Origin: Nitrospira sp.
GTDB taxonomy: Bacteria > Nitrospirota > Nitrospiria > Nitrospirales > Nitrospiraceae
Direction of reading: 5' to 3'
Length of the DNA: 64,000 bases
Assembly: GCA_019636875.1 (NCBI GenBank)
Contig: JAHBWR010000004.1
Coordinates: 1-64,000, forward strand
Under the pieces are notes generated by a model, which saw only the letters and a list, made by a program, of their open reading frames with translations, was not told where the DNA came from and ran no database searches. Both the position numbers and the translations under genes were made by a program. Below are positions 10,093 to 27,851 of the stretch, one piece after another. Numbering within the stretch: position 1 is the stretch's first letter; the number at the start of each line of letters is the position of its first letter.

Positions 10093-10695
10093 ATGGTGAC
10101 GGTTCGTATTCATGGTCGAGGTGGACAGGGGGTAGTCACGGCGGCGGAACTGCTCTCCACTGCCGCATTCGCGGCCGGACAACAGGCTCAGGCGTTCCCA
10201 AGTTTCGGGTCGGAACGCATGGGAGCGCCGGTGATGGCTTTCTGTCGTATCGCGCGACAGCCGATTCGAACCCGCGAAGCGGTGACCCATCCCGACGTCC
10301 TGATCGTTCAGGATCCGACCCTGCTCCATCAGGTTGAACTGTTCGCCGGGTTGTCACGTGAAGGCTACATCCTCATCAATTCGATCTTCTCGTTGGATGA
10401 ATTAGGGATCGGAGAATTTCTGAAGTCGATTCCAAGTGACCATGTCTGTGTCATCCCGGCATCGGACATCGGGATGAAACACATGAAGCGTCCCATCGTG
10501 AATACGCCCTTGCTGGGGGCATTTGCCGCGCTCACCGGTGTGATTGATCTGGCGTCGGTCCAGTCGGCCATGCGTCAGAAGTTTCCGGGATCTCTGGGCG
10601 AGGCCAACGCGGCCGCCGCGAAGGACGGCCATGACCATGTCATCACATATCGAGTCGGAGAAAGGAGCGACCAGCACCATGCTCGCGCAACGTGA
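10093..10695 (+). CDS. porC: 2-oxoacid:ferredoxin oxidoreductase, gamma subunit
   Basis: 200 aa, the usual size for a separate gamma subunit. The family start is clear: VRIHGRGGQGVVTAAELLS at 4-22, then FGSERMGAPVMAFCRI near 37-52. The gamma domain contributes to CoA binding and complex assembly in pyruvate or 2-oxoglutarate:ferredoxin oxidoreductases. It is the first gene of a run with alpha, beta and a ferredoxin-bearing flavoprotein, and the alpha gene starts inside its last 17 bases. Substrate cannot be fixed from gamma alone; pyruvate is favoured by the partners. Confidence 0.92.
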   Translation: MVTVRIHGRGGQGVVTAAELLSTAAFAAGQQAQAFPSFGSERMGAPVMAFCRIARQPIRTREAVTHPDVLIVQDPTLLHQVELFAGLSREGYILINSIFSLDELGIGEFLKSIPSDHVCVIPASDIGMKHMKRPIVNTPLLGAFAALTGVIDLASVQSAMRQKFPGSLGEANAAAAKDGHDHVITYRVGERSDQHHARAT

Positions 10696-11932
10696 AGGAT
10701 CGCAAGCCGTGGCCGAGGCCGTGGTCTTGTGCCGCCCTGAGGTCATTGCGGCCTATCCCATCTCACCCCAGACGCATATCGTCGAGCGGTTGTCGCGCAT
10801 GGTCAAGGGGGGCGATGCCGGCCGTTGCCAGTACCTGAATGCGGAATCCGAATTCGGAGCGCTGAGTGTTTTGATCGGAGCCTCGGCGACCGGTGCGCGG
10901 ACTTACACCGCGACGACGAGTCAGGGGCTTCTCTTCATGGCCGAGGCTGTCTACAACGCGGCGGGGCTGGGGTTGCCGATCGTCATGACGATCGCGAACC
11001 GTGCTGTCGGCGCACCGATCAACATCTGGAACGACCATTCCGACAGCATGGCCTTGCGCGATGCCGGATGGATTCAGTTGTATGCGGAAACCAATCAGGA
11101 AGCGGCGGATCTGCATATCCAGGCATTTCGATTGGCGGAGGAACTGAGCTGTCCGGTCATGGTGTGCATGGACGGGTACATTCTGACTCATGCCTACGAA
11201 CCGATCGATCTGCCTGACCAGTCTGAGGTCGATTCGTTTCTGCCTCCCTTCTCGCCCGTCCAACTACTGGATCCGAGTGATCCGATCTCCATCGGCGCCA
11301 TGGTGGGACCAGAAGCCTTCACCGAGGTGAAGTACCTGGCTCATCGGCAACACCTTCGGGCGCTGACGCTGGTGCCGGACATCGCCGACTCATTCCAACA
11401 ACAATTTCACCGTGAATCAGGAGGCCTCTACAGAACCTATCGAATGACTGACGCCGACACGGTCGTCGTTGCGCTCGGATCTGTCATCGGGACAATCAAA
11501 GACACCGTGGACGAGTTGCGTGATGAAGGCATCGCGATCGGCTGCCTGAAAGTCGGGTGTTACCGGCCGTTTCCGGCGATGCAGCTCCGTGCCGCATTGG
11601 AGGGTGTCACACGCGTGATCGTCGTCGAAAAAGATCTGGCGGTGGGAATCGGTGGCATCGTGTCCGCTGATGTCCGGATGGCGTTGAACGGCTTGCCCAT
11701 TCCAGTGCACACCGTCATTGCAGGATTGGGGGGACGGTCGATCTCCGCCGAATCGTTGAAACACATGGTTCGCGATGCTCGGGCCGAGCGTCTAAGCGAG
11801 CCGTACTTCCTAGACCTGAACATGAGGGTGGTTGACGAAGAACTTGCCAGAAGGCGGGAAGAACGACAGGCGGGGCCGCTCGCCGAGCAGCTGATTCGAG
11901 CGGTAAAGGCCATCGGAACGAAGGTTGTGTAG
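10679..11932 (+). CDS. porA: 2-oxoacid:ferredoxin oxidoreductase, alpha subunit
   Basis: 417 aa from the ATG at 10679 (AAAGGAGC 11 bases before); ATGs at 10631 and 10637 are alternatives that overlap porC more. The pyrimidine-binding domain begins at once (EAVVLCRPEVIAAYPISPQTHIVERL) and contains the TYTATTSQGLLFMAEAVYNAAGLGLPIV segment in two parts, typical of PorA. Domain II follows from about 270 with GSVIGTIKDTVDEL and a VEKDLAVGIGG element. With beta it forms the thiamine-diphosphate site that interconverts pyruvate and acetyl-CoA plus CO2. In an organism fixing carbon by the reductive TCA cycle it would run towards pyruvate. Confidence 0.93.
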   Translation: MLAQREGSQAVAEAVVLCRPEVIAAYPISPQTHIVERLSRMVKGGDAGRCQYLNAESEFGALSVLIGASATGARTYTATTSQGLLFMAEAVYNAAGLGLPIVMTIANRAVGAPINIWNDHSDSMALRDAGWIQLYAETNQEAADLHIQAFRLAEELSCPVMVCMDGYILTHAYEPIDLPDQSEVDSFLPPFSPVQLLDPSDPISIGAMVGPEAFTEVKYLAHRQHLRALTLVPDIADSFQQQFHRESGGLYRTYRMTDADTVVVALGSVIGTIKDTVDELRDEGIAIGCLKVGCYRPFPAMQLRAALEGVTRVIVVEKDLAVGIGGIVSADVRMALNGLPIPVHTVIAGLGGRSISAESLKHMVRDARAERLSEPYFLDLNMRVVDEELARRREERQAGPLAEQLIRAVKAIGTKVV

Positions 11933-11943
11933 CGGAGCATTCA

Positions 11944-12945
11944 ATGACGACTCAGCGTATCAAATTCTATCAGACCGGAACCTATACGGCGGGGAATCGC
12001 TTGCTGGACGATGAAGCCCGCACCGTGCAATCGCGACCGGATCGCACCAATTCCCTGAATTCCGGCCATCGCGCCTGTCAAGGATGTGGTGAAGCCCTGG
12101 GAGCCCGCTATGCCATAGACGCCGCGATGCGTGCTGCGCAGAAGCGACTGATCGCGATCAATGCGACCGGCTGTCTCGAGGTCTTTTCTAGTCCTTACCC
12201 CGAAAGTGCTTGGCAGATCCCGTGGATGCACTCGCTGTTCGGCAATGCCCCGGCGGTGGCGAGCGGGGTTGCGGCGGCATTGCGGGCCAAGGGGCGCGAT
12301 GACGTGAAGGTCGTCGCCCAGGGCGGCGACGGGGCAACGGTCGACATCGGGTTCGGGTGCCTTTCCGGGATGTTCGAACGAAACGATGAGGTCCTCTACA
12401 TCTGTTACGACAACGAAGCCTACATGAACACCGGCATTCAGCGGTCCGGGGCGACGCCTCCCTTCGCACGGACGAACACGACGCAGGCGGTCGGCGAAGC
12501 TCCCGGCAATCGTTTGGGTACCGGGAAGAATGTCCCCCGCATCGCCATGGCCCACGGCATTCCCTATGTCGCGACAGCCTCGGTGGCGGATCTCCATGAT
12601 CTGGAAGCCAAGGTTGCCACCGCCATGGGAATAAAGGGCGCACGGTACATTCACATCCACGTCCCCTGTCCGCTCGGCTGGGGGTCCGATCCCGCACACA
12701 CCATGAAAGTAGCGAGAATGGCGGTGGAATCCGGCCTCTTTCCATTGTTCGAAGCGCGAGCGGGACGTGTGGTGGATAGGACGAAGATCCGGCGAAAGGT
12801 TTCGGTGGAGCGGTACCTGGAGCTCCAAGCCAGATTCAAACATCTGTTCGCGCCACACAGGCAAGAGGAGGCGATCGCTGCCATCCAAGCCATTGCCGAC
12901 CAGAACATCGCGACGTATGGATTAACTGATTCGAGACTCCCATGA
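11944..12945 (+). CDS. porB: 2-oxoacid:ferredoxin oxidoreductase, beta subunit
   Basis: 333 aa. Cysteines for the proximal [4Fe-4S] cluster are visible in ACQGCGEALGARY, NATGCLEV and near the end in HVPCPLGWG. The thiamine-diphosphate/Mg2+ motif runs from GGDGATVDIGFG to YDNEAYMNTG. The PCPLGW segment resembles the PCPTGW of pyruvate-type enzymes, supporting pyruvate over 2-oxoglutarate; that is an inference. It starts 11 bases after porA and its stop overlaps the next start (ATGA), consistent with one translationally coupled complex. Confidence 0.94.
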   Translation: MTTQRIKFYQTGTYTAGNRLLDDEARTVQSRPDRTNSLNSGHRACQGCGEALGARYAIDAAMRAAQKRLIAINATGCLEVFSSPYPESAWQIPWMHSLFGNAPAVASGVAAALRAKGRDDVKVVAQGGDGATVDIGFGCLSGMFERNDEVLYICYDNEAYMNTGIQRSGATPPFARTNTTQAVGEAPGNRLGTGKNVPRIAMAHGIPYVATASVADLHDLEAKVATAMGIKGARYIHIHVPCPLGWGSDPAHTMKVARMAVESGLFPLFEARAGRVVDRTKIRRKVSVERYLELQARFKHLFAPHRQEEAIAAIQAIADQNIATYGLTDSRLP

Positions 12946-14567
12946 ACCATAAACCTTTTGCGATCACGCTCGATCCGAACAGTAGTCTCGCCAACCATAC
13001 GGGTAACTGGCGCACGATGAGACCGGTCTATGTCGATCGGCTGCCGCCCTGTAACCACGCGTGCCCTGCTGGGGAGAATATCCAAGCCTGGCTCTATCTC
13101 GCGGAAGAGAAGAACTATGAAGCCGCTTGGCGACGGATCATGGAAGACAATCCGATGCCGGCCATCCATGGGCGTGTCTGCTATCACCCCTGTGAGACTG
13201 CCTGTAATCGTGGTCAGCTGGATGAAGCCGTCAGCATCCGCGCCGTGGAGCGATTCTTGGGTGATCTGGCGATTAAGGAGCGATGGCAAGTCCCCTGCGC
13301 TCCTTCAACCGGGAAGAAGGTGTTGATCGTGGGTGCGGGCCCCAGCGGGCTGTCTGCGGCCTATCACCTGACGAGGATGGGTCACGCGGTCACGATCTAC
13401 GAGGCGTCGGATAAGGTTGGCGGGATGATGCGCTACGGCATTCCTTCCTACCGGCTCTCGCGTGATGTCGTCGATGCGGAGGTCGGACGGATAGAAGCGA
13501 TGGGCGTCACGATCCGACTCAAGACGAAAGTCGAGGATCTTGACGTGGCGATTCAGGAAGGAGGATTTCATGCCACGTTCCTTGCGGTCGGGGCCCACCT
13601 CGCCCGGCGCATCGACATTCCTGGTTTCGACGCTAAACGATTGCTCGACGCGGCGACGTTTCTGCGCGGTATGGAGAGCGCCTCGCCGATCAAGATCGGG
13701 AGGCGGGTGGCGGTCTATGGCGGGGGCAACACCGCGATCGATGTGGCCCGGACCGCCGAGCGTCTGGGCGCGGAGCCAGTGGTTATCTATCGACGGGACG
13801 AGGCCCATGCTCCTTCGTTCAAAGAGGAAGTCGCAGAAGCGCGCGAAGAAGGTGTGCAGTTCCAGTGGTTGCGACGCATTGCAAAGGGTGAGGAGAAACA
13901 CTTGACGCTCGAGGTCATGAAGTTGGACGAGCAGGGAAAACCGAAACCCACCGGTCGGGTTGAGACAGTTGAGGCCGATATGGTGGTGCTGGCTTTGGGA
14001 CAAAAGGCTGATACCGGGTTCTTGCGGAATGTGACGGGAGTGTATGTGCGGGACGACGGGACTATCGAGGTCGACGAACAGATGATGACCGGCCACCCGG
14101 GCCTATTTGCCGGAGGAGACATGGTGCCCGGCGAACAATCCGTGAGCATGGCGACCGGTCACGGGAAACTGGCTGCCCGTCACATCGATGCCTATTTGCG
14201 CGGGACTCCGTACGTGAGGGCTCAGGCCCATGCACTTGCCACGTTCGACCGGCTGAATCCCTGGTATTACACCGATGCGGAGCAGTCCAAGCAACCGGTG
14301 CTGGCCCTTGCGAGGCGGCGCGCGAGCTTCGAAGAAATGGTCGGAGCGTTGGATCAGGACACGGCCTTGCTGGAGGCGCGCCGCTGTTTGTCTTGCGGCA
14401 ATTGTTTCGAATGCGACAACTGCTACGCCGTCTGCCCGGACAATGCGGTGATCAAACTCGGGATAGGCAACCGGTTCGAGATCCATTACGACTACTGCAA
14501 GGGCTGCGGCCTGTGCGCCGAGGAATGTCCATGCGGAGCGATCGATATGGTCAAGGAAGTAAAGTAG
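12942..14567 (+). CDS. GltD-like NAD(P)H flavoprotein fused to a PorD-like 2x[4Fe-4S] ferredoxin
   Basis: 541 aa with three parts. Residues 25-90: Cys-rich Fe-S domain of the GltD family (CNHACPAGENIQ; CYHPCETACNR). Residues 120-450: FAD and NAD(P) Rossmann folds (VGAGPSGLSAAYHL; VYGGGNTAIDVARTAERLG; a GG-D FAD-closing motif GLFAGGDMVPGE). Residues 480-541: two ferredoxin clusters (CLSCGNCFECDNCYAVCP and CKGCGLCAEECPCGAIDM), equivalent to the delta subunit otherwise missing from this operon. The likely role is to pass electrons between NAD(P)H and the Por clusters. The family of GltD-like proteins also includes glutamate synthase small subunits and NfnB; no glutamate synthase large subunit is nearby. 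Confidence 0.85.
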   Translation: MNHKPFAITLDPNSSLANHTGNWRTMRPVYVDRLPPCNHACPAGENIQAWLYLAEEKNYEAAWRRIMEDNPMPAIHGRVCYHPCETACNRGQLDEAVSIRAVERFLGDLAIKERWQVPCAPSTGKKVLIVGAGPSGLSAAYHLTRMGHAVTIYEASDKVGGMMRYGIPSYRLSRDVVDAEVGRIEAMGVTIRLKTKVEDLDVAIQEGGFHATFLAVGAHLARRIDIPGFDAKRLLDAATFLRGMESASPIKIGRRVAVYGGGNTAIDVARTAERLGAEPVVIYRRDEAHAPSFKEEVAEAREEGVQFQWLRRIAKGEEKHLTLEVMKLDEQGKPKPTGRVETVEADMVVLALGQKADTGFLRNVTGVYVRDDGTIEVDEQMMTGHPGLFAGGDMVPGEQSVSMATGHGKLAARHIDAYLRGTPYVRAQAHALATFDRLNPWYYTDAEQSKQPVLALARRRASFEEMVGALDQDTALLEARRCLSCGNCFECDNCYAVCPDNAVIKLGIGNRFEIHYDYCKGCGLCAEECPCGAIDMVKEVK

Positions 14568-14585
14568 CACGGAGGGGAACGACAC

Positions 14586-15137
14586 ATGAGCACCAGAAAA
14601 GGCAAACGCTACACGACCTCGTACAAGGAAAAACAGCACCCCAAACAGGACCCCTATGCGATGTTCAAGGCGCCGAAGGGACCGGCGATGTGCCGAACAT
14701 GCAAAGCCATCTATGTGAACAAGCGGTGGTACATCGACAGCAGTGAAGCCAGCAAGCTGGCGGGAGCTTCCACCACCCAGAAACTTCTCTGCCCCGCCTG
14801 TCAGAAGATCACGGACGACTATCCGGAAGGGATCGTGACGTTGCAATGGTCGGACCTTCGTGAGCACGAAGATGAGATCAGGGGATTGATCGCCAATGTG
14901 GAAGCACGCGCCGTCTCCGTGAATCCCCTCGACCGAGTGATGAAGATCTCAAAGCGTAAAAAGGATTTGGAAGTCCAGACAACCAACGATCGGTTGGCGC
15001 ATCGGCTCGGACGTGCGCTGGTGCGGGCCTACAAAGGGAAGGCGGAGTACAAGTGGGCGCATCGCGACATGCTGGTCCGGGTGACGTGGCAGGGGCCGGA
15101 TGAAAACACGAAATCGAAATCGAAAGGAAAGAGATAA
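14586..15137 (+). CDS. Zinc-ribbon protein of unknown function (BCAM0308-like)
   Basis: 183 aa, basic, no signal or membrane segment. A zinc ribbon is formed by CRTC (37-40) and CPAC (about 63-66), with RWYID between them. The C-terminal half (QTTNDRLAHRLGRALVRAYKGKAEYKWAHRD in parts) looks like a compact alpha/beta RNA- or nucleotide-binding module, and the last residues are Lys/Ser rich. It resembles the uncharacterised proteins often labelled BCAM0308; this label is from memory. It follows the por flavoprotein by 18 bases and precedes atpD by 48, so it is likely part of the same transcript. Function not assigned. Confidence 0.6.
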   Translation: MSTRKGKRYTTSYKEKQHPKQDPYAMFKAPKGPAMCRTCKAIYVNKRWYIDSSEASKLAGASTTQKLLCPACQKITDDYPEGIVTLQWSDLREHEDEIRGLIANVEARAVSVNPLDRVMKISKRKKDLEVQTTNDRLAHRLGRALVRAYKGKAEYKWAHRDMLVRVTWQGPDENTKSKSKGKR

Positions 15138-15170: not shown

Positions 15171-17010
<1,840 letters not shown>

Positions 17011-17014
<4 letters not shown>

Positions 17015-17283
17015 GTTTGGCCGACAATAAGCTCAAGGAACGCATCAGTCGGCAGACTCGTCGGATGAAGCAGGCCGAACGGGACCGCCCGACCCTACTG
17101 GGACAAACTGTCTATGTGGGAACACTTGGGTTACTGATGGTCATCCCCATCGTGGTCGGCGCCTATGTCGGACAATGGCTGGACAGTCTTGTGGAAGGAT
17201 ATTCGATACGGTGGACGATCGGCTTCATTCTGATCGGAGTGGTGATCGGGGCGGTGAATATCTACCTGTTCGTGAAAGAGTGA
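17011..17283 (+). CDS. atpQ: AtpQ/AtpI-like membrane subunit of the N-type ATPase
   Basis: 90 aa from GTG 17011, overlapping the atpC stop and preceded by GGGGAG; a GTG at 17002 is less well placed. A basic N-terminal 30 residues is followed by two membrane helices (VGTLGLLMVIPIVVGAYVG and IGFILIGVVIGAVNIYLF). This is the ATPase gene 1/AtpI pattern, called AtpQ in N-ATPase operons, and is thought to help assembly of the c ring. In the described gene order an atpR follows; here atpB starts only 3 bases later. Confidence 0.85.
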
Positions 17284-17286
17284 CCG

Positions 17287-17970
17287 ATGGAAGTGAATCC
17301 TGTCTTCTCTCTTGGTCCGATCGGGGTGACCGTACCAGTGGTGACCACCTGGGGGATCATGCTCGCCCTCGTCACGCTGTCATGGTTGGCGACCAGGTCT
17401 CTTCAGCAAAAGCCGGGACCGACGCAAGTCGTTCTTGAGGGTGTGATCGGCGCAATGGATCGTGCCGTTCGCGAGGTGTTGCCGAATGCTGCGACGCAAG
17501 TGCTGCCGTTCATCGGTACCCTCTGGGTCTTCGTGGTCGTGGCCAATCTTGTCGGTATCATTCCAGGCCTTCATTCGCCGACGGGAGCGTTGTCCACGAC
17601 GGCGGCTCTGGCGGTCCTTGTATTCATCTCGGTCCATTGGTTCGGCATCCGATCGGAAGGCATGAGCGCCTATCTCAAACACTACCTGGCACCGAACCCC
17701 ATCATGTTGCCGTTTCACCTCATGAGCGAGGTCACGAGAACTATTGCGTTGGCCATTCGGCTCTTCGGAAACATCATGAGTCTGGAAATGACGGCGATGC
17801 TGGTGTTGCTGGTTGCTGGCTTTCTGGTTCCGGTGCCGCTTTTGATGTTGCACGTAATCGAAGCACTGATTCAGGCCTACATCCTCGGGATGCTTGCATT
17901 GATCTATATCGCCGGTGCGATTCAGTCGCAGCAACAGCGTCAATCTGAGAAGAGGGAACCTCATGCGTGA
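17287..17970 (+). CDS. atpB: N-type F1Fo-ATPase, a subunit
   Basis: 227 aa with about five to six hydrophobic helices. The essential stator arginine is Arg158 in IALAIRLFGNIMS. An upstream PFIGTLWVFVVVANLVGIIPG segment and the C-terminal EALIQAYILGMLALIYI helix are typical. It provides the half-channels for the translocated ion next to the c ring. The last bases overlap atpE by 8. Confidence 0.94.
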   Translation: MEVNPVFSLGPIGVTVPVVTTWGIMLALVTLSWLATRSLQQKPGPTQVVLEGVIGAMDRAVREVLPNAATQVLPFIGTLWVFVVVANLVGIIPGLHSPTGALSTTAALAVLVFISVHWFGIRSEGMSAYLKHYLAPNPIMLPFHLMSEVTRTIALAIRLFGNIMSLEMTAMLVLLVAGFLVPVPLLMLHVIEALIQAYILGMLALIYIAGAIQSQQQRQSEKREPHA

Positions 17971-18232
17971 TATCAGTTGGTTTGCGCTTGCTTCAACCGT
18001 GGTGGCCGCTTTGGCCATCGCGATCGGTACCATGATTCCGGCTCTGGCGATGGGGCGTGCGATCAGCCAAGCCTTGGAAGCGCTGGCAAGGCAGCCGGAG
18101 GCCGAACGGTCGATCATGCGGACACTGTTCATCGGATTGGCCATGATTGAATCGTTGGCGATCTACTGTCTCGTCATCGTTTTGATCATTCTCTTCCGCA
18201 ACCCATTGCTGGAATACTTCTTCAAGCCCTAA
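17963..18232 (+). CDS. atpE: N-type F1Fo-ATPase, c subunit
   Basis: 89 aa hairpin from the ATG at 17963 (GAGAAGAGGG upstream). The polar loop is ARQPEAE (42-48). Helix 2 carries the ion-binding Glu63 followed by Ser64 and Tyr68 (MIESLAIY), which fits the Na+-type ES..Y pattern except that Leu65 replaces Thr. In helix 1, aligning from the RQP loop, Pro26 is kept but position 30 is Met where Na+ rotors have Gln and many N-type rotors Glu. The ring should therefore bind its ion with fewer polar ligands, and H+ coupling is more likely than Na+; this is inference from an alignment made by eye. Confidence 0.93.
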   Translation: MRDISWFALASTVVAALAIAIGTMIPALAMGRAISQALEALARQPEAERSIMRTLFIGLAMIESLAIYCLVIVLIILFRNPLLEYFFKP

Positions 18233-18278
18233 TCGATTGGGTCTGGAATCGACGAGGGATTGCATCGAGGAGAGTACG

Positions 18279-19025
18279 GTGGAGCTGGATTGGTCGACGT
18301 TTTTGCTCGAAATCGTCAATGTGCTGGTCTTGGTGTGGCTTTTGAAACGGTTTCTGTACCGGCCGGTCATGACGGTGATTGAGGAGCGTAGGACGGCCGT
18401 CGAAAAGACGTTGGCGGATGCCCATCGGTTGCAGAGTGAGGGAAACTTGCTTCGGGACCGGTATGAGCAGCGGTTGGTCGAATGGGAGCGGGAAAAGGAA
18501 CGGGCGCGTGTCCGATTACAAGAGGAGATAGCGGAGGAACGGAAGCGGCGGCTCGCGACGCTCCAGACTGAGATTCAGCAAGAACGAGACCATGCGTCGT
18601 CCAGGGACCGTCATCGCACCAAAGAGATCGTTCGCCAGGCTGAGGCGACCGCGGTCCTTCAGGGCGCGCAGTTTGCCGCCGCGTTCCTTTCGCGTGTCGT
18701 CGGCCCAGACCTTGAGGCCAAGCTTGTCGATGCTGCACTGAAAGATTTGGCAACGCTTTCCCCTGACTCGGTGGAGCATCTACGGGCGACTCTTCCGGCG
18801 ACCGTGCAAGGCCGTATCACGACGGCGTTCGCGCTGGGACCCACACATCGGGGTCGGGTGACAAAACAAGTGGAAGGAGTCTTGGATCGGACGGTCGCGT
18901 GGGAATTCCTCGAGGACCCGGAGTTGATGGCCGGGTTGCGGGTCAGTCTCGGCGGATGGGTGTTGCGTGGAAATCTACGGGACGAATTGAAATTCTTTGC
19001 GGAGAGCGGAGCGAATGGCTGCTGA
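18279..19025 (+). CDS. atpF: N-type F1Fo-ATPase, b subunit with delta-like C-terminal extension
   Basis: 248 aa from GTG 18279, with GAGGAGA just upstream; a TTG at 18237 has none. A membrane helix at about 8-27 ([18 protein letters not shown]) is followed by a long charged coiled coil (about 45-140) and a C-terminal globular part (145-248) with [16 protein letters not shown] and [19 protein letters not shown], the pattern of the delta subunit. Ordinary b subunits are about 160 aa. N-ATPase operons have no atpH, and the extension explains how this one can connect to F1. Overlaps atpA by 11 bases. Confidence 0.88.
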
Positions 19026-20517
19026 ACGTTCAGCAGCGGAGTCCGTTCTCGAACGGCGCGCTGCCTGGCTACGGACCTATCGGTTTGAGCTTCGGGTCGT
19101 CGAACAGGGAACCGTGGTATCGGTCGGAGATGGCATCGCATGGATCGAGGGGTTGCCCTCTGCCGCAATGGACGATGTGCTTGACTTCGAGGATGGCAGC
19201 CGGGGCCTGGTGGTTGTCTTGGCGCGGCGTCAGGTGGGGGTCATCTTGCTTCACGCGACAGCAGGCTTGACGGCCGGCACTGCGGTTCAGGTCTCGAAGC
19301 GAACGCTGACTATTCCCGTCGGCGATGCTCTGCTCGGGCGCGTCATCGACCCCTTGGGAAACCCTCTCGACGGCCTTGAGCGACCGGATTGTCATGCGTC
19401 GCGGCCATTGGATGTCCTGTCCCCTTCCATCGCGGAGCGGGATCGCGTACGGAAACCTCTCTACACGGGCAACAAGGTTGTTGATACGCTGATCCCCATC
19501 GGCAAAGGACAGCGGCAGCTGATCATCGGTGATAACGGACTGGGGAAAAGTTCGTTGGCCATCGATACGGTGATGAATCAGCGCGGAAAGGATGTCCTGT
19601 GTGTCTATACGTTGATCGGACAAAAACGCACAACGGTGGTCAATACGATCGAGATGCTTCGACGGTTCGGTGCCATCGATCATACGGTCGTGGTCGTGGC
19701 CGAGGCGACCGCGCTACCAGGTCTCACCTTCCTCGCTCCCTTTGCCGGCTGTGCGGTGGCAGAAGCATGGATGAGGCGCGGAAAAGATTCTCTGGTGGTC
19801 TATGATGATCTGACGACGCATGCGCAGGCCTACCGGGAGCTCTCCCTGTTGCTTCGACGCCCACCGGGCCGTGAGGCCTATCCGGGGGATATCTTCTATC
19901 TTCATGCTCGCTTGTTGGAGCGGAGCACCTGCCTGGTCGCGAACGGTGGCGGCAGCATGACGGCCCTGCCGATCGTTGAAACCAAGGAAGGTGATATCGC
20001 GAGCTACATTCCGACGAATCTCATCTCGATCACAGACGGGCAGATTTATGTGGATCGCCGTCTCTTTACCGCCGGTATTATGCCGGCCATCGACGTGACC
20101 AAGTCCGTTTCGCGGGTCGGTGGGAAGAGTCAACATCCGCGAATCAAAGAAAAGGCGGGTCGGGTGAAGCTGGATTTTTTGCAGTTCTTGGAGCTGGAAG
20201 CCTTTACACGATTTGGAACGAAACTTGAGGCCTCAATGGAAGCAAAGATCGCCCGCGGCCGAGTCCTGCGCGAGTTGCTGAAGCAGGATCGCCTCTCGCC
20301 GCTGTCCATCGAAGGCAATCTGGCGTGGCTCATCGCCTATAATCTCGGCTTGTTTGATACGGTTCCCAAAGACAGACTCCCTGGACTGATGGAGGGGCTT
20401 GCCGCGAAGGTTTCAGCCAGCGGGCTCACCCTCGATGATGGGGAGGAGCGGTGGCGGCAGAGCGTCACGGCATGGTGCGAGGAATGGACTGCTCATGAGC
20501 AAACGGCGGGAGCTTGA
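19015..20517 (+). CDS. atpA: N-type F1Fo-ATPase, alpha subunit
   Basis: 500 aa from the ATG at 19015, a few bases after GCGGAG. Non-catalytic nucleotide-binding P-loop GDNGLGKS at 172-179; the usual form in F-type alpha is GDRQTGKT, so the middle of the loop differs. Also visible: [48 protein letters not shown] in parts, and the C-terminal [17 protein letters not shown]. Forms the hexamer with beta. It overlaps atpG by 23 bases. Confidence 0.95.
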
Positions 20518-21346
20518 AGAGCATGTGCGGACCCTCGGGGAGATCGAGGGGATTATGGGGGCGATGAAGAATCTCGCCCTGATGGAGAGTCATAAGCTGA
20601 ATCGACTTCTCAACACGCAACAACGCGTCGTCAGCGACATCGAGACCGCCGGGCGGGATTTCTTGTCGTTCTACCCGGGCTTCTTGCCGAGCCTGTCCGG
20701 ACATGAGCTCTATCTGGTTATCGGAACCGAACGAGGATTCTGCGGTGAGTTCAACGAGCGGCTACTCTCGGCGTTGGATCGTCATGTTCGAACAGTCGAT
20801 GACAGAAATCCGTCGATCTTCGTTGTCGGGCGTAAGCTCTTCCAACGGGCTGAGCAACGATATCGTCTGGTGGAATCCGTGGAGGGAGCGACTGTTGCCG
20901 AAGAGGTTCCGTCGATCTTGGGCCGTGTGATCGATCAGGTGAGAGCGATCTCCTCGCGGCAGTTTCCGAAGGGAAGTGTACCGGTGACCGTCGTCGCGCA
21001 CGATGCGTCGACGGAGGCGGTCGTTGTGCGATCGCTACGGCCGTTCCATGCTGATTCGACTGCCGCGGACACCAAACCATTCCCGCCACGACTGACTCTT
21101 CCACCGGCTGACTTCTTCGCGCAGCTGGTCGATCTCTATCTCTTTTCGATTCTGAACGAGATATTCTACAGCGCGCTCATGGCCGAAAGCCGAGCGCGTC
21201 TTGCACATCTGGAGGCAGCCCTACGACGTCTTGAAGGAACTCGTGCCGAGATGCTGCGCAAGCGGAACCTGCTTCGGCAGGAAGAGATTACCGAAGAGAT
21301 TGAAGTGTTGATGCTGAGTACGCTGGAGACATCGCATCGACAGTAA
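20495..21346 (+). CDS. atpG: N-type F1Fo-ATPase, gamma subunit
   Basis: 283 aa from the ATG at 20495 inside the end of atpA. The N-terminal helix ([25 protein letters not shown] in parts) and C-terminal helix ([37 protein letters not shown] in parts) that form the rotor coiled coil are clear, with a Rossmann-like middle ([14 protein letters not shown]). Last gene of the ATPase cluster; the next gene begins 125 bases further on with its own possible promoter. Confidence 0.93.
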
Positions 21347-21403: not shown

Positions 21404-21470
21404 CTCGACAGCCGGACCGTGCTCGATGGGGCGGTCTAGAGAAATCGTGAGACAGAGGAAGCAAACGAAC

Positions 21471-22886
21471 ATGAATCAAGATGTCGATGTCGCTATCATT
21501 GGGGCCGGTAGCGCAGGCCTCTCCGCACTGCAAGAGGTTCGGCGACACACGGAGAACGTTGTGCTCATCAACGACGGAGCATATGGCACGACCTGCGCGC
21601 GCGTCGGCTGCATGCCGTCGAAAGCGTTGATCGAGGCGGCCAACGCCTTCCACCATCGGCATCGGCTCCTGGAAATGGGTATCTCCGGCGGAGACCGGTT
21701 GACCCTGGACCGTGCAGCCGTGTTGCGTCGCGTGCGAAAGTTGCGCGATGCATTTGTCGCGTACGTTCTGGAGCGAATAAAGGGCCTCGGTGAACGCAAC
21801 ATCATGGGTCGTGCCAGATTCGTCGCGCCGGACGTTCTTGAGGTGAACGGCCAACGGGTGAAGGCCCGGAGCGTGGTCATTGCAACCGGATCCCGACCCA
21901 TCGTTCCAGCGGCATGGAAAGCGCTTCGGGAATGCGTCATTACAAGCGACGACCTCTTCGAACTAGAGACGCTGCCTTCACGCATGGCGGTCCTGGGTCT
22001 GGGCAGCGTGGGCGCCGAAATGGCACAGGCACTCAGCCGTCTTGGTATTGAGGTTACCGCATTTGATGGTGTCGAACAGGTAGCTGGTTTGACCGATCCC
22101 ATCGTTAATCGAGCCGCCGTCGCGATCCTGAGGGAGGAGTTTCCCCTCTATTTGGGAACCAACGCGGTGGTTGACGCCGACGGGGCCTCTGTAAGAGTCA
22201 GCGCGGGCGCCAATGCGGTGATCGTGGACAAGGTCCTTGTCGCTCTCGGAAGGCGACCAAACGTGGAAGGACTCGGTCTCGAGCAGATCGGTGCCGAGTT
22301 GGATGGAAACGGCATTCCTTGTTTCAATCCGCGGACGATGCAAGTCGGCGACCTACCTATCTATATAGCTGGTGACGTCAACGGGCATCGGCCGTTGCTC
22401 CATGAGGCTATCGATGAAGGACACATCGCCGGCTACAATGCGTCATCTAAGAGGCCGGAATGTTTTCAGCGCCGCACGCCGCTGTCTATCGTGTTCACCG
22501 ATCCTAACATTGCCGCTGTCGGGCAACTGTTCGGGGAGCGCCATGAGAGGGAGATCGTGATTGGTGAGTTCGATTTCTCTGAGCAAGGCCGCGCGCTGAT
22601 GGCGAACGAGAATCACGGGTGGTTACGCGTGTACGCAGACCGGAATAATGGGCGATTGGTCGGCGCCGAACTGTGCGCGCCCCGCGGCGAACACCTCGCA
22701 CACATGCTTGTCTGTGCGATCCACGCGCGCATGACGGCACAGGAATTCTTGAGGCTGCCGTTTTATCATCCCACGGTGGAAGAGGGTGTGGAGTCAGCGG
22801 TGCGGAGTATCGCTAAGATGCTGCCTTGCGCATTGGGTCCCGACCTCGCGACGTGCGAGTCGATCTGGAATGAGACTCAGGACTAG
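21471..22886 (+). CDS. lpd: Dihydrolipoamide dehydrogenase-like pyridine nucleotide-disulphide oxidoreductase
   Basis: 471 aa from the ATG at 21471 behind GAGGAAGC; an ATG at 21426 in frame lacks the site. FAD fold GAGSAGLSALQEV at 11-23, redox-active Cys42/Cys47 in TCARVGCMPSK, central NAD-binding fold GLGSVGAEMAQAL near 180, FAD-closing IYIAGDVNG near 300, and the C-terminal HPTVEEGVESAV providing the catalytic His. The enzyme oxidises dihydrolipoyl groups with NAD+ in oxoacid dehydrogenase or glycine cleavage complexes; no E1, E2 or H-protein gene is nearby, so another disulphide substrate is possible. The helical segment after the redox Cys pair fits the Lpd/MerA-type subgroup. Confidence 0.82.
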   Translation: MNQDVDVAIIGAGSAGLSALQEVRRHTENVVLINDGAYGTTCARVGCMPSKALIEAANAFHHRHRLLEMGISGGDRLTLDRAAVLRRVRKLRDAFVAYVLERIKGLGERNIMGRARFVAPDVLEVNGQRVKARSVVIATGSRPIVPAAWKALRECVITSDDLFELETLPSRMAVLGLGSVGAEMAQALSRLGIEVTAFDGVEQVAGLTDPIVNRAAVAILREEFPLYLGTNAVVDADGASVRVSAGANAVIVDKVLVALGRRPNVEGLGLEQIGAELDGNGIPCFNPRTMQVGDLPIYIAGDVNGHRPLLHEAIDEGHIAGYNASSKRPECFQRRTPLSIVFTDPNIAAVGQLFGERHEREIVIGEFDFSEQGRALMANENHGWLRVYADRNNGRLVGAELCAPRGEHLAHMLVCAIHARMTAQEFLRLPFYHPTVEEGVESAVRSIAKMLPCALGPDLATCESIWNETQD

Positions 22887-23004
22887 GCGGTACCTTTGAT
22901 GGAAGATCCTGTCTGGCAGATGGAAGCGAATAGGTGGGGTGCCAGAGGTGTCGCACGAGACGGAGCTTCCGGACCGGTCGATTCAACCTGGGAGGTAACC
23001 AGGC

Positions 23005-24030
23005 ATGTCCATAATCCGGCAAGACCCCACGACGAGGGAGTGGGTCATCATTGCTGCGGAGCGGAACAGACGCCCGCATGAACATCCCCGACCTGTTCGT
23101 ACTGGCTCGCAACCACCTGATACCGGTTTCTGCCCATTCTGTCCCGGGCATGAAGCATCGACGCCGGACGAAGTATTGAGGGTGCCCGACTCCGGTGGAA
23201 CCGGCTGGGCTGTGCGGGTGATCTCGAACAAATTTCCCGCATTGGGTGTTGGGGGTGGACTGGAACGAAGGGAACCGGGTCCGTTGTTCCGTGAGATGGA
23301 CGGGGTGGGGACGCACGAGGTCGTGATTGAGACGCCCTCTCACGAGAGAAGCTTACCCTTGATGACGGACCGTGAGGTGGCGCATGTTCTGCGCGCCTAT
23401 CAGGCGCGATACCGGTCGTTGCGGAGAGACCCGCGTCTCAAATACATCATCATTTTCAAGAACCATGGCGAAGCAGCGGGGACGTCGCTGGCACATCCTC
23501 ATTCCCAATTGGTTGCGACGCCGGTCCCGCCCATGTTGCTCCGCAGAAAGTACGAAGTCGCCGTCGCCCACTATGACGACACGGGCCGGTGCTTGTATTG
23601 CGATATTGCGGAGGAAGAACGAAAGGCGAAGAGCCGGGTCGTCTTGGAAACCGACCGGTTCCTGGTCTTCCATCCGTTTGCCTCGCGAGTGCCGTTCGAG
23701 ACGTGGATTACACCCAAACGGCATCAACCGTCGTTCGGACAGGTGAGCGAGGAGGATCTTCGTGAATTGGCGCCGGTGCTACGGCGAACGCTGCGGGCTT
23801 TATACGACAGGCTGGGTGATCCGGATTTCAACTACATCATCCACAGTGCGCCGGCGGAAGATGAAAACAAGGACTACTACCTCTGGCACATCCAAATTCT
23901 TCCTCGGCTGACGACCATTGCCGGATTCGAACTGGGATCGGGCATTTACGTGTCGACCATGCGACCTGAAGATTCGGCAGCCGTGATTAGAGACCATGAG
24001 CAGGCGACAGCTGTACAAGGATCCGCCTGA
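23005..24030 (+). CDS. galT: Galactose-1-phosphate uridylyltransferase family protein
   Basis: 341 aa. The catalytic HPHSQ motif lies at 164-168, with His166 as the uridylylated residue; zinc ligands begin with Cys43 and Cys46 (FCPFCPGHE). A second C-x2-C (CLYCDIAEEER) near 198 and WITPKRHQPSF near 233 complete the two HIT-like halves. Canonical activity exchanges UMP between UDP-glucose and galactose-1-phosphate. No galK or galE is near; the next gene is a TreT-like synthase that uses nucleotide-glucose, so the enzyme may interconvert sugar-1-phosphates and UDP- or ADP-sugars for that pathway, as an inference. Its ribosome site sits in the loop of a small hairpin. Confidence 0.88.
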   Translation: MSIIRQDPTTREWVIIAAERNRRPHEHPRPVRTGSQPPDTGFCPFCPGHEASTPDEVLRVPDSGGTGWAVRVISNKFPALGVGGGLERREPGPLFREMDGVGTHEVVIETPSHERSLPLMTDREVAHVLRAYQARYRSLRRDPRLKYIIIFKNHGEAAGTSLAHPHSQLVATPVPPMLLRRKYEVAVAHYDDTGRCLYCDIAEEERKAKSRVVLETDRFLVFHPFASRVPFETWITPKRHQPSFGQVSEEDLRELAPVLRRTLRALYDRLGDPDFNYIIHSAPAEDENKDYYLWHIQILPRLTTIAGFELGSGIYVSTMRPEDSAAVIRDHEQATAVQGSA

Positions 24031-24044
24031 TGAAAGGAGCCACG

Positions 24045-25298
24045 ATGCTTCCGAAAATCTCCGTGAGTCGACGGTGCGGGGCGATCTTAGCCAATGTTCA
24101 GCGGTACCGTATGCTCATCAGCGACGAACTCAGCGAGGAACTCTCGCAGTTGGCGCGCGAGTTGAGAGATGTACGGATTTGCCATCTGAACTCGACCGCC
24201 TTCGGCGGCGGCGTCGCCGAACTGCTCTCCAGATACCTGCCGATGCTGCAAGCTTTGGGCATTTCTGCCGACTGGCGCTTGATCCACGGCCAACCGGAAT
24301 TCTTCACCGTCACGAAGGCTTTTCACAACGCGCTGCAGGGCGGACATTACTCATTGGGTGAACCGGAACGGAACCTGTATCTCGAGGTGAATGAACGAAG
24401 CGCGGAAGCGCTGGGGGACGACTACGACGTCTATATCGTACATGATCCTCAACCGGCGGCGCTGCGACATTTCACCGGGCCTCGTCACGCGAAATGGATC
24501 TGGCGTTGCCACATCGATAGTTCATCGCCGGACAAGCAGGTGAGTGGATTCTTGCTGCCCTACCTCGAGGAATATGATGCCGTGGTCTTCACGATGTCCG
24601 AGTTCCTCCTGCCTGGTCTCAGGGCTCAACGAGCGGCGTTCATTGCGCCGGCCATCGATCCATTGGCGACCAAGAACATGGAGCTCTCCCAGGATCTGTG
24701 CCGCCGCGCCATTGCAGACTCCGGCGTCGATCCGAGTAAATCGTTGCTCGTGCAAGTGTCACGGTTCGATCCTTGGAAAGACCCCTTAGGCGTTATCGAA
24801 GCCTACCGGTTGGTCAAGAAGGACATTCCCGACGTGCAGCTTGCCTTGATCGGCGCGATGGCCGGGGATGATCCAGAGGGCTGGGAGCTGCTCGACCGGG
24901 TGGAAGAGGAAGCCTCCGGAGATCCGGACATGTTCGTGTTTACGAATCTGGCTGGGGTCGGCAGCATGGAGGTCAACGTGTTTCAGCGAGGCTGCGACGT
25001 CGTCATTCAAAAATCGCTTCGCGAGGGATTTGGACTTGTCGTCTCGGAAGCGTTCTGGAAGGAGAAGGCCGTCGTGGCGGGACAGGCAGGAGGAATTCCG
25101 ATGCAGTATCCTGAAGGATTCGAGGCCAATCTGGTTCACAGCGTCGAAGCCTGTGCGGAACGCATCGTCCATCTGTTGCGTCATCCCGGTGAGCGGGGTT
25201 CGTTTGGGCGGGCCGGCCGCGAGCACGTGCGTAAGAACTTCCTCCTGCCTCGACTGGTTCGTGACGAGCTTCGATTGATCAAGCAACTGGTCGGTTGA
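24045..25298 (+). CDS. treT: Trehalose synthase, TreT-type GT4 glycosyltransferase
   Basis: 417 aa from the ATG at 24045 behind AAAGGAG; an ATG at 24030 overlapping the galT stop is possible. The first domain has HLNSTAFGGGVAELLS (substrate loop of trehalose-synthase-type GT4 enzymes), WRLIHGQPEFF and a WIWRCHIDSSSP segment. The second has VQVSRFDPWKDPLGVI, the donor-site start of GT4, and EGFGLVVSEAFWKEKAVV with the conserved Glu pair. TreT makes trehalose from NDP-glucose and glucose, or the reverse. The alternative trehalose phosphorylase of the same family cannot be excluded. Adjacent galT and downstream ppsA suggest a sugar-nucleotide and gluconeogenic context. Confidence 0.85.
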   Translation: MLPKISVSRRCGAILANVQRYRMLISDELSEELSQLARELRDVRICHLNSTAFGGGVAELLSRYLPMLQALGISADWRLIHGQPEFFTVTKAFHNALQGGHYSLGEPERNLYLEVNERSAEALGDDYDVYIVHDPQPAALRHFTGPRHAKWIWRCHIDSSSPDKQVSGFLLPYLEEYDAVVFTMSEFLLPGLRAQRAAFIAPAIDPLATKNMELSQDLCRRAIADSGVDPSKSLLVQVSRFDPWKDPLGVIEAYRLVKKDIPDVQLALIGAMAGDDPEGWELLDRVEEEASGDPDMFVFTNLAGVGSMEVNVFQRGCDVVIQKSLREGFGLVVSEAFWKEKAVVAGQAGGIPMQYPEGFEANLVHSVEACAERIVHLLRHPGERGSFGRAGREHVRKNFLLPRLVRDELRLIKQLVG

Positions 25299-25381
25299 GG
25301 TTCGAGGATGGTCCTACAACCCGTTGCATAAGAGGCTGGCTGCGTACAAGATCAATAACATGATCCAGACAAGGAGCACCC

Positions 25382-27799
25382 ATGGGCAGAGTCACACAGA
25401 GTCTTGAATTGGTGAAATGGTTCGAAGAGCTGAGCATTGAAGATGTGCCGGCTGTCGGAGGGAAGAACGCGTCGTTGGGCGAAATGTATCGTGAGCTGGC
25501 CGCCAAAGGCGTGAAGGTGCCCAACGGGTTCGCCGTCACCGCGGACGCGTACCGCGCTTTCTTGAAAGGAGCAAAGCTCGATAGCACGATCAGGACCATT
25601 CTCACAGACCTCGACACCCACAATCTGGAGAATCTGCGCCAGCGTGGGAGACAAGTGCGACAGGCGATTCTGGGCGCGGTCTTGCCGCTCGAGTTGTCCG
25701 AGGCAATCAGCGATGCGTACGATCGATTGAGCGGCAGCCATGCAGAACCGGTCGATGTTGCCGTGCGGAGCAGTGCGACGGCTGAGGATCTTCCCGACGC
25801 CAGTTTCGCCGGTCAACAGGAAACCTATCTGAATGTGCAGGGACATCTCGCATTATTGGAATATTGTAAACGCTGCTTCGCGTCGCTGTTCACCGACCGG
25901 GCCATTTCGTACCGGGCCGACAAAGGGTTTGATCATTTCAAGATCGCGCTCTCCATCGGCGTGCAACGGATGGTGCGCTCCGACCTGGCGACGTCCGGCG
26001 TGATGTTTTCGATCGATACGGAAACCGGCTTTCGTGACGTGGTGCTGATCAATGCGGCCTATGGTCTCGGTGAAAACGTCGTGCAGGGGGCAGTGAATCC
26101 GGACGAGTACTATGTCTTCAAGCCGACATTGAAACAGGGACATCGCCCCATTCTACAGAAAATAATCGGCACCAAAGAATTCAAACTGGTGTATGACATC
26201 GGCGGCGGCAAGATGGTCAAGAATCTACCGGTCCCTCCGGGCGAGAGGGCAAAGTTCGCTGTGACGGACGAGGACATTCTGACGCTTGCCCGCTGGGCCT
26301 GCACCATTGAAGATCATTACAGCGCAAAGCGCGGAGCTCCAAGCCCGATGGACATGGAATGGGCCAAGGACGGCCTGACGGGGGAACTCTTCATCGTGCA
26401 GGCTCGCCCCGAAACCGTGCAATCGTTGAAAAAGGGACAGGTACTGGAGACCTATCGACTCAAACAACGAGGGCGGGTCTTGGTCGAGGGGCGGAGTATC
26501 GGGGACAAGATCGCGCAGGGACCGGTACGGGTCATCAAATCCGTTCAGCAGATTGACGAATTTCGAGGTGGCGAAGTCTTGGTCACGGATAAGACGGATC
26601 CGGACTGGGAACCGGTCATGAAGAAAGCGCAGGCGATCGTGACCAATCGGGGAGGACGGACCTGCCATGCCGCCATCGTCAGCCGCGAATTAGGATTACC
26701 AGCCATCGTCGGGACGGAACATGCGACTGACTTGCTCCACGATGGACAACTCGTCACTGTGTCCTGTGCGGAAGGCGATAAGGGTTTCGTGTACGAGGGG
26801 AAAATTCCCTTTCACGTCGAGAAGCTGGACGTGAAAGAGATCCGCAGGCCAAAGACCAAGATCATGATGAACGTCGGAAACCCACAAGAAGCCTTCGGGC
26901 TCTCCTCCATCCCGAATGACGGCGTCGGCTTGGCAAGGGAAGAATTCATCATCAGTACCTATATCAAAGTGCATCCGCTGGCGCTCCTCGAGTTCGACCG
27001 ACTGGACGATCAGGCCCTGAGGGCTGAGATCAACCGAGTCACGGAGGGGTATTCGGACAAGGCCGAGTTCTTCGTCGATAAGTTGGCGCAGGGCGTCGGG
27101 ATGATCGGGGCGGCGTTCTATCCGAAGGATGTCATCGTCCGGCTCAGCGACTTTAAGAGCAATGAGTACGCCGATCTGATCGGAGGCCGGCGCTACGAGC
27201 CGCAGGAAGAGAACCCGATGTTGGGGTTCCGAGGGGCGTCGCGCTATTACGATCCGCGCTATCGCGAGGGCTTCGCATTGGAATGCCGGGCGATGAAACA
27301 GGTGCGGGATGTGATGGGCCTGATGAACCTGAAACTCATGGTCCCGTTTTGCCGTACGGTCGAAGAAGGGAGACTCGTTCTGGCAGAGATGGAGCGGCAT
27401 GGGTTGAAGCGGGGTGAGAAGGGGCTCGAAGTCTACGTCATGTGTGAAATTCCGAGCAACGTGATTTTGGCGGAAGAATTTGCCGACATCTTCGATGGCT
27501 TTTCGATCGGCTCCAATGACCTCACGCAACTGGTGCTCGGCGTGGATCGTGATTCCGAAATCGTGGCCCATCTGTTCGACGAGCGAAACGAGGCGGTTAA
27601 GAGAATGGTGGCGAGCGTGATCAAGGCCGCCAAGGCGAAGGGACGGAAGATCGGCATTTGCGGGCAGGCGCCAAGCGACTATCCGGAGTTCGCCCAGTTT
27701 CTCGTCGAACAGGGGATTGAGAGCATGTCATTGAACCCTGACGCGGTCATCCGAACGACGATGGCCGTGCTGGAACAGGAGAAACAGCGTTCACGATGA
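25382..27799 (+). CDS. ppsA: Phosphoenolpyruvate synthase
   Basis: 805 aa, full length, from an ATG directly after AAGGAGCACCC. ATP + pyruvate + water gives PEP + AMP + phosphate in the cytoplasm. The N-terminal ATP-grasp part has VGGKNASLGEMYREL and VAVRSSATAEDLPDASFAGQQ in parts; the swivelling phosphohistidine is His429 in GGRTCHAAIVSRELG; the C-terminal PEP-binding part has FSIGSNDLTQLVLGVDRDS in parts and Cys760 (GICGQAPS). It takes pyruvate from the oxoacid oxidoreductase into gluconeogenesis. No PSRP regulator gene (ppsR) is adjacent. Confidence 0.97.
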   Translation: MGRVTQSLELVKWFEELSIEDVPAVGGKNASLGEMYRELAAKGVKVPNGFAVTADAYRAFLKGAKLDSTIRTILTDLDTHNLENLRQRGRQVRQAILGAVLPLELSEAISDAYDRLSGSHAEPVDVAVRSSATAEDLPDASFAGQQETYLNVQGHLALLEYCKRCFASLFTDRAISYRADKGFDHFKIALSIGVQRMVRSDLATSGVMFSIDTETGFRDVVLINAAYGLGENVVQGAVNPDEYYVFKPTLKQGHRPILQKIIGTKEFKLVYDIGGGKMVKNLPVPPGERAKFAVTDEDILTLARWACTIEDHYSAKRGAPSPMDMEWAKDGLTGELFIVQARPETVQSLKKGQVLETYRLKQRGRVLVEGRSIGDKIAQGPVRVIKSVQQIDEFRGGEVLVTDKTDPDWEPVMKKAQAIVTNRGGRTCHAAIVSRELGLPAIVGTEHATDLLHDGQLVTVSCAEGDKGFVYEGKIPFHVEKLDVKEIRRPKTKIMMNVGNPQEAFGLSSIPNDGVGLAREEFIISTYIKVHPLALLEFDRLDDQALRAEINRVTEGYSDKAEFFVDKLAQGVGMIGAAFYPKDVIVRLSDFKSNEYADLIGGRRYEPQEENPMLGFRGASRYYDPRYREGFALECRAMKQVRDVMGLMNLKLMVPFCRTVEEGRLVLAEMERHGLKRGEKGLEVYVMCEIPSNVILAEEFADIFDGFSIGSNDLTQLVLGVDRDSEIVAHLFDERNEAVKRMVASVIKAAKAKGRKIGICGQAPSDYPEFAQFLVEQGIESMSLNPDAVIRTTMAVLEQEKQRSR

Positions 27800-27851
27800 G
27801 TCTGGGAGATGAAACCGGATCGGAAAAATGTGAGCAGAGGGAAGCGAGGGG

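What the first reader, a model, noticed from the sequence alone, without database searches (positions are those of the whole stretch)
17963..18232. N-ATPase c subunit with Met30 in place of the helix-1 Gln/Glu ion ligand
Alignment through the RQP loop places Met30 where Na+ rotors have Gln and many N-type rotors Glu, while helix 2 keeps Glu63-Ser64 and Tyr68. The usual Na+ set is thus incomplete and ion specificity may have shifted to H+. N-ATPases are often assumed to pump Na+, so this matters for energy models.
Basis: partly seen in the sequence, partly recalled or inferred. Interest (0 to 1): 0.6.

Follow-up and report, generated by a model that had tools for sequence, protein, structure and literature searches.

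The report
Proton-type N-ATPase rotor, Met-30 clade
This Nitrospira gene encodes the rotor subunit of a second ATPase whose sodium-binding Gln/Glu is replaced by methionine; the same swap is fixed in a large bacterial clade and very probably means the machine moves protons, much as a 2025 paper already proposed for this bacterial family.

Summary
In a gapless alignment the window's c subunit has Met30 where Na+ rotors have Gln32/Glu32, and it keeps Glu63, Ser64 and Tyr68. A second Na+ element is also lost: Thr67 is Leu65. This is not a local oddity. Met30 is invariant in all 54 clusters (representatives under 75% a-subunit identity) of a clade found in Nitrospirota, Gamma-, Beta- and "Delta"-proteobacteria; a related clade, including anammox planctomycetes, has Leu there. 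All these operons lack atpR. Their a subunits all carry a His at the E. coli aHis245 site, which the Glu-type, AtpR-bearing N-ATPases never do. In 128 dereplicated loci the three traits agree in 125, but they trace to only one or two evolutionary changes. The best reading is an H+-coupled N-ATPase held beside an ordinary F-type enzyme. The 2025 Nitrospirales comparison (PMC12342949) already reports loss of E32, T67 to L and loss of atpR in Nitrospiraceae, and predicts H+. I add the breadth of the clade, the a-subunit match, the fixed identity of the Met, and genomes that carry both types. No ion specificity was measured. B. pseudomallei shows that an N-ATPase can be H+-specific even with Glu at this site.

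The parts
15186..16610 (+). atpD, beta subunit (first gene, N-ATPase order)
   Evidence: TIGR03305 alternate F1F0 beta 599 bits, top NCBIfam hit
16607..17014 (+). atpC, epsilon subunit
   Evidence: PF02823 and TIGR03166
17002..17283 (+). atpQ (PF09527, AtpZ/AtpI-like); followed directly by atpB, no atpR between
   Evidence: PF09527 46.9 bits; start of a lies 4 nt after the end of Q
17287..17970 (+). atpB, a subunit, with Arg210, Asn214, Glu219, His245, Gln252 equivalents (E. coli numbering) and an extra Glu at 248
   Evidence: NF009954/PRK13420 352 bits; alignment to E. coli AtpB
17963..18232 (+). atpE, c subunit; Met30 at the helix-1 ligand site, Glu63-Ser64-Leu65..Tyr68 in helix 2
18279..19025 (+). 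atpF, b subunit with C-terminal OSCP/delta-like part (N-type hallmark)
   Evidence: PF00430 plus PF00213 in one protein; TIGR03321
18997..20517 (+). atpA, alpha subunit
   Evidence: NF009884 703 bits, TIGR03324 570 bits
20495..21346 (+). atpG, gamma subunit
   Evidence: PF00231, TIGR03323

Best explanation
The window carries a complete N-ATPase operon (atpDCQBEFAG, no atpR, no separate delta gene) in a Nitrospira-type genome that also has an ordinary F-type ATP synthase. It belongs to a large N-ATPase subclade whose rotor binds its ion with one carboxylate (Glu63) in a pocket made more hydrophobic by Met30 and Leu65. I infer that protons, not Na+, load onto Glu63 and that the a subunit supplies an E. 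coli-like proton half-channel (Glu219/His245/Asn214/Gln252 equivalents). Shown: the residues, the register, the operon, the clade-wide fixation, the absence of AtpR, and the a-subunit residues. Inferred: H+ specificity; use as an ATP-driven H+ pump or as a second H+-ATP synthase under certain conditions; and that a c subunit without a helix-1 carboxylate no longer needs AtpR.
For: (1) Two Na+-site elements are lost together: the residue-32 side-chain ligand and Thr67, which holds the bound water (PMC3692424). The same paper says H+ sites are simpler and mainly hydrophobic. (2) E. coli c has Ile28 at this site (placed by the RQP loop), and the genome's own F-type c has Ile (L002). (3) In subunit a the His245 equivalent is present in 136/136 Met-type and 16/16 Leu-type loci without AtpR and in 0/99 Glu-type loci with AtpR; the 219 site is Glu/Gln/Asp in the Met type but mostly Ala/Thr/Val/Ser in the Glu type. 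Both residues lie on the modelled E. coli proton path (PMC10532555). (4) The operon is intact and syntenic in most of 20 wider neighbourhoods, and Met30 is invariant in 54/54 clusters. (5) G980 and G1066 each hold a Glu-type operon with AtpR and a Met-type operon without it; each genome's single AtpR lies next to the Glu-type a gene. (6) PMC12342949 reached the same ion prediction for Nitrospiraceae.
Against: No Met-type rotor has had its ion measured in anything I could read. Ser64, Tyr68, Glu63 and a backbone carbonyl remain, so weak Na+ binding is possible. B. pseudomallei shows that residue 32 does not by itself predict the ion. aAsp119 of the E. coli path is Gly here. The three-trait agreement rests on one or two evolutionary changes.
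Confidence: 0.85

Rival explanations
1. The rotor still uses Na+: Glu63, Ser64, the Met61 backbone carbonyl and water coordinate Na+ without a helix-1 ligand.
For: Glu63, Ser64 and Tyr68 are invariant in the clade; N-ATPases were originally predicted to be mostly Na+-selective (cited in PMC5376962); some host genera are marine (Microbulbifer, Marinobacter, Vibrio).
Against: The residue-32 ligand and the Thr67 water contact are both gone; the a subunit has the E. coli-type Glu/His pair; soil, groundwater and freshwater hosts are common; no measured Na+ ring lacks a Gln or Glu here, to my knowledge.
Confidence: 0.1
2. The operon is a degenerate N-ATPase, as suggested for Nitrosococcus halophilus copies that lack atpR (PMC4154653).
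For: AtpR is missing and gamma is poorly conserved.
Against: All eight subunit genes are open; Glu63, aArg210 and Met30 are invariant across classes and phyla; the same AtpR-less layout recurs in every one of about 136 Met-clade loci.
Confidence: 0.04
3. The link between helix-1 carboxylate, AtpR and aHis245 is not functional; the traits simply descend together from one ancestral split. (This rival concerns the AtpR link only and can be true together with the best explanation.)
For: One clade for all AtpR-less Met/Leu loci is not rejected (AU p 0.598); fewest changes are 3, 4 and 2; one lineage (L234/L235) has Met and keeps AtpR.
Against: The best tree puts Glu+AtpR loci L082-L084 beside the Leu clade, which would make two joint changes; L234/L235 show His218-Glu219 in subunit a, as if also re-tuned.
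Confidence: 0.5

Closest known systems
Nitrospiraceae N-type ATPases lacking E32 and atpR (ISME J 2025, PMC12342949)
   Same: Same bacterial family, same c-subunit changes (E32 lost, T67 to Leu), same missing atpR, same H+ prediction.
   Different: The passage I read does not mention that the residue is always Met, the a-subunit residues, or the spread through proteobacteria; I could not see its supplementary figures.
Burkholderia pseudomallei N-type ATPase, c17 ring (PMC5376962)
   Same: N-ATPase gene order; ring measured as H+-specific.
   Different: Has Glu30 at the helix-1 site, a Glu-Thr-Met..Tyr motif, and atpR in the operon.
Na+-type N-ATPases of haloalkalitolerant Nitrospira (Ca. N. 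alkalitolerans, PMC7784846)
   Same: N-ATPase in Nitrospira beside an F-type enzyme.
   Different: That c has the typical Na+ motifs; Glu-type Nitrospira operons here carry AtpR and lack aHis245.
Methylacidiphilum N-type ATPase with ESLxxY (PMC9543262)
   Same: ESLxxY in c; order atpDCZBEFAG with no atpR listed; proposed proton export.
   Different: Verrucomicrobia; the helix-1 residue was not stated and I did not fetch it.
Ilyobacter/Fusobacterium Na+ F-type c-rings (1yce, 3zk1)
   Same: Hairpin fold; Glu-Ser..Tyr in helix 2.
   Different: Gln32 or Glu32 and Thr67 instead of Met30 and Leu65.

Membership tests
N-ATPase (Dibrova type) | Gene order with atpD-atpC before atpB, atpA-atpG last | tested here: met
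   atpD C Q B E F A G at 15186-21346
N-ATPase (Dibrova type) | No separate delta gene; long C-terminal extension of b | tested here: met
   b protein carries a PF00213 match after PF00430; no gene between b and alpha
N-ATPase (Dibrova type) | atpQ (PF09527) present | tested here: met
   PF09527 46.9 bits at 17002-17283
N-ATPase (Dibrova type) | atpR (PF12966) present | tested here: not met
   No PF12966 match in G000; no room between Q and a. The whole Met clade lacks it, so it is filed as an AtpR-less sister group or subclade of N-ATPases on phylogeny and the other features, not as a canonical AtpR-bearing N-ATPase
N-ATPase (Dibrova type) | Exists beside an F-type or A-type ATP synthase | tested here: met
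   Second, F-type c and a at G000:C140
N-ATPase (Dibrova type) | a-subunit phylogeny groups with N-ATPases | tested here: met
   In the a-subunit tree it sits inside the N-type group, apart from the F-type rows; the fork is starred (SH-aLRT 97) but drawn open
Na+-coupled c-ring | Gln or Glu at position 32 (I. tartaricus numbering) | tested here: not met
   Met30
Na+-coupled c-ring | Glu65, Ser66 and Tyr70 | tested here: met
   Glu63, Ser64, Tyr68
Na+-coupled c-ring | Thr67 or another polar residue holding the bound water | tested here: not met
   Leu65
Na+-coupled c-ring | Na+ protects against DCCD/NCD-4 | not testable with these tools
   needs purified protein

The most novel reading that the evidence does not exclude
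N-ATPases fall into two integrated kinds. In one, a c subunit with two carboxylates (or Gln) needs AtpR for assembly and works with an a half-channel without His245. In the other, a one-carboxylate c (Met or Leu at 32) needs no AtpR and works with an E. coli-like Glu219/His245 channel. AtpR would then be a helper for inserting the helix-1 carboxylate, and its absence a genomic marker of H+-coupled N-ATPases.
Probability: 0.3. Interest if true: 0.55.

Novelty: already known. Interest (0 to 1): 0.32.

Why it matters
Many genome papers read 'N-ATPase' as 'Na+ pump'. A large subclade, recognisable by Met or Leu at c-32, ESL/ESI, no atpR and aHis245, is better read as H+-coupled; this changes energy models for Nitrospira, anammox bacteria, methanotrophs and many gammaproteobacteria. 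Genomes that carry both types (G980, G1066) would allow a clean test of what AtpR is for.

Tried and rejected
Register shift: rejected by the alignments with solved c-rings. Odd single gene: rejected, the Met is fixed in a clade. Claim of several independent co-losses of the acid and AtpR: not supported; the AU test does not reject a single clade and independent pairs number 2-3. A first AtpR scan missed divergent copies in L177, L179 and L180; Pfam and a domain-position scan corrected this. Conserved neighbours as a clue to function: neighbours outside the operon vary widely, so no pathway link is claimed. Dibrova 2010 is not in the library, so statements about it are second-hand. I did not predict a structure: a single-chain model would not show the inter-subunit ion site. 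The careful tree did not finish; the quick tree was used.

Full report
What is there. Window 17963-18232 encodes an 89-residue c subunit inside an operon atpD-C-Q-B-E-F-A-G. The b protein carries an OSCP-like tail, there is no separate delta gene, and atpQ (PF09527) is present. AtpR (PF12966) is absent from the operon and from the held genome, which is about 84% complete. The same genome has a second, F-type c and a (G000:C140). The genome belongs to the genus group that includes MAGs titled Nitrospira sp.: G059's 35,644-bp contig matches L099 in length and a-gene placement.

The residue. Alignment to solved c-rings is gapless from Pro26 through RQP to Glu63 and puts Met30 on Gln29 of the Spirulina ring, and on Gln in the chloroplast and A. 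woodii rings. Against I. tartaricus (1yce, verified) the site reads M30/M61/E63/S64/L65/Y68 for Q32/V63/E65/S66/T67/Y70. In F. nucleatum, Na+ is bound by residue 32, Glu65, Ser66, the Val63 carbonyl and a water held by Thr67 (PMC3692424). So the window protein lacks the residue-32 ligand and the Thr contact. E. coli c has Ile28 at the same place, and this genome's own F-type c has Ile.

How common it is. I collected about 290 loci: Nitrospirota genomes, the 80 nearest named genomes, plasmids and samples of Planctomycetota, Gammaproteobacteria, a deltaproteobacterial phylum and Burkholderiales relatives found by N-type a-subunit models. These samples are not prevalence estimates, and raw counts include some loci fetched twice. 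Met at this site occurs in 138 N-type loci: the Nitrospirota Met clade, Microbulbifer, Marinobacter, Vibrio, Photobacterium, Legionella, Methylobacter, Acidithiobacillus, Nitrosomonas, Accumulibacter, several deltaproteobacterial MAGs and one Chloroflexi MAG that may be misbinned. A related clade (Brocadia, other planctomycetes, some Nitrospirota) has Leu. After dereplication Met30 is invariant in 54/54 clusters, one of 27 invariant positions, with c identity down to 61%.

AtpR. With a position-aware profile scan, Glu at the site goes with AtpR in 99 loci and Gln in 3. Met goes with no AtpR in 136 and Leu in 16. Exceptions: L234/L235 (Met with AtpR); L201 and L232 (Glu without adjacent AtpR; L232's genome has an AtpR on another contig). 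L174's AtpR lies farther upstream. G980 and G1066 hold one operon of each kind, with their only AtpR beside the Glu-type a gene.

Subunit a. In E. coli numbering, His245 is present in every Met and Leu locus that lacks AtpR and in none of the 99 Glu loci with AtpR. Position 219 is Glu/Gln/Asp in the former and mostly Ala/Thr/Val/Ser in the latter. Arg210, Asn214 and Gln252 are universal. The Met clade has its own Glu at 248. The exceptional L233-L235 have His218-Glu219. In E. coli models protons pass Glu219, Asp119, His245, Asn214 and Gln252 to cAsp61 (PMC10532555). Asp119 is Gly here, so the path is not identical.

Phylogeny. On an a-subunit tree built without the trait columns, the Met clade is well supported. 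Glu+AtpR loci L082-L084 fall beside the Leu clade. The three traits agree in 125 of 128 dereplicated loci. But a single clade of all AtpR-less Met/Leu loci is not rejected (p 0.598). So this is one or two joint changes, not repeated coevolution, and a functional link to AtpR is a hypothesis.

Mechanism and role. The most likely mechanism is H+ transport on Glu63 in a hydrophobic pocket, with an E. coli-like half-channel in subunit a. Pumping versus synthesis is not decided by sequence. The window's neighbours (pyruvate:ferredoxin oxidoreductase genes, a BCAM0308-family protein, trehalose synthase, PEP synthase-like enzyme, Na/Ca exchanger, P-type cation ATPase) hint at low-energy or low-oxygen conditions, but they are not conserved in other carriers.

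What is known. PMC12342949 states that most Nitrospiraceae N-type c subunits lack E32, have Leu for T67, lack atpR and may move H+. PMC9543262 reports ESLxxY in acidophilic Verrucomicrobia. PMC4154653 noted AtpR-less copies in Nitrosococcus and suspected degeneration, and relays the suggestion that AtpR aids c-ring assembly. B. pseudomallei, with Glu at the site, was measured as H+-specific, so residue 32 is not a sufficient predictor. The finding is correct but its core is already published. What I add is the breadth of the clade, the fixed identity of the Met, the a-subunit match and the within-genome pairs.

Noticed in passing
L046 (G137:C78) and L049 (G140:C142), order Nitrospirales, family code f3: The N-type atpE is a fused tandem of two c hairpins (216- and 228-aa open frames), both with a helix-1 Glu and helix-2 Glu-Ser; AtpR is weak (58-60 bits). 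A four-helix c subunit in an N-ATPase.
   Followed up: partly
L234 (G835) and L235 (G798), deltaproteobacterial phylum of G465: A separate lineage with Met at the c-32 site that keeps AtpR; subunit a there has His218-Glu219 and Gly245, and its relative L233 has Gln at c-32.
   Followed up: partly
L080, L081, L086, L282, L284 and Brocadia loci L087-L092: Leu at c-32 with ESIxxY and no AtpR; nearby Glu-type relatives L082-L085 keep AtpR, and L083/L085 show no detectable AtpQ.
   Followed up: partly
window 10093-15137 and 21426-31621: The N-ATPase operon lies between pyruvate:ferredoxin oxidoreductase genes with a BCAM0308-family protein (named after the Burkholderia low-oxygen-activated locus) and genes for dihydrolipoyl dehydrogenase-like, GalT, trehalose synthase, PEP synthase-like, Na/Ca exchanger and P-type cation ATPase.
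   Followed up: partly
L003-L005, L007, L008, L011, L012, L038: Several Nitrospirota genomes also carry V/A-type c subunits.
   Followed up: no
subunit a, position 248 (E. coli numbering), window a protein: A Glu at this site is nearly fixed in the Met clade (135 of 136 loci) and absent from the Leu and Glu types; function unknown.
   Followed up: no
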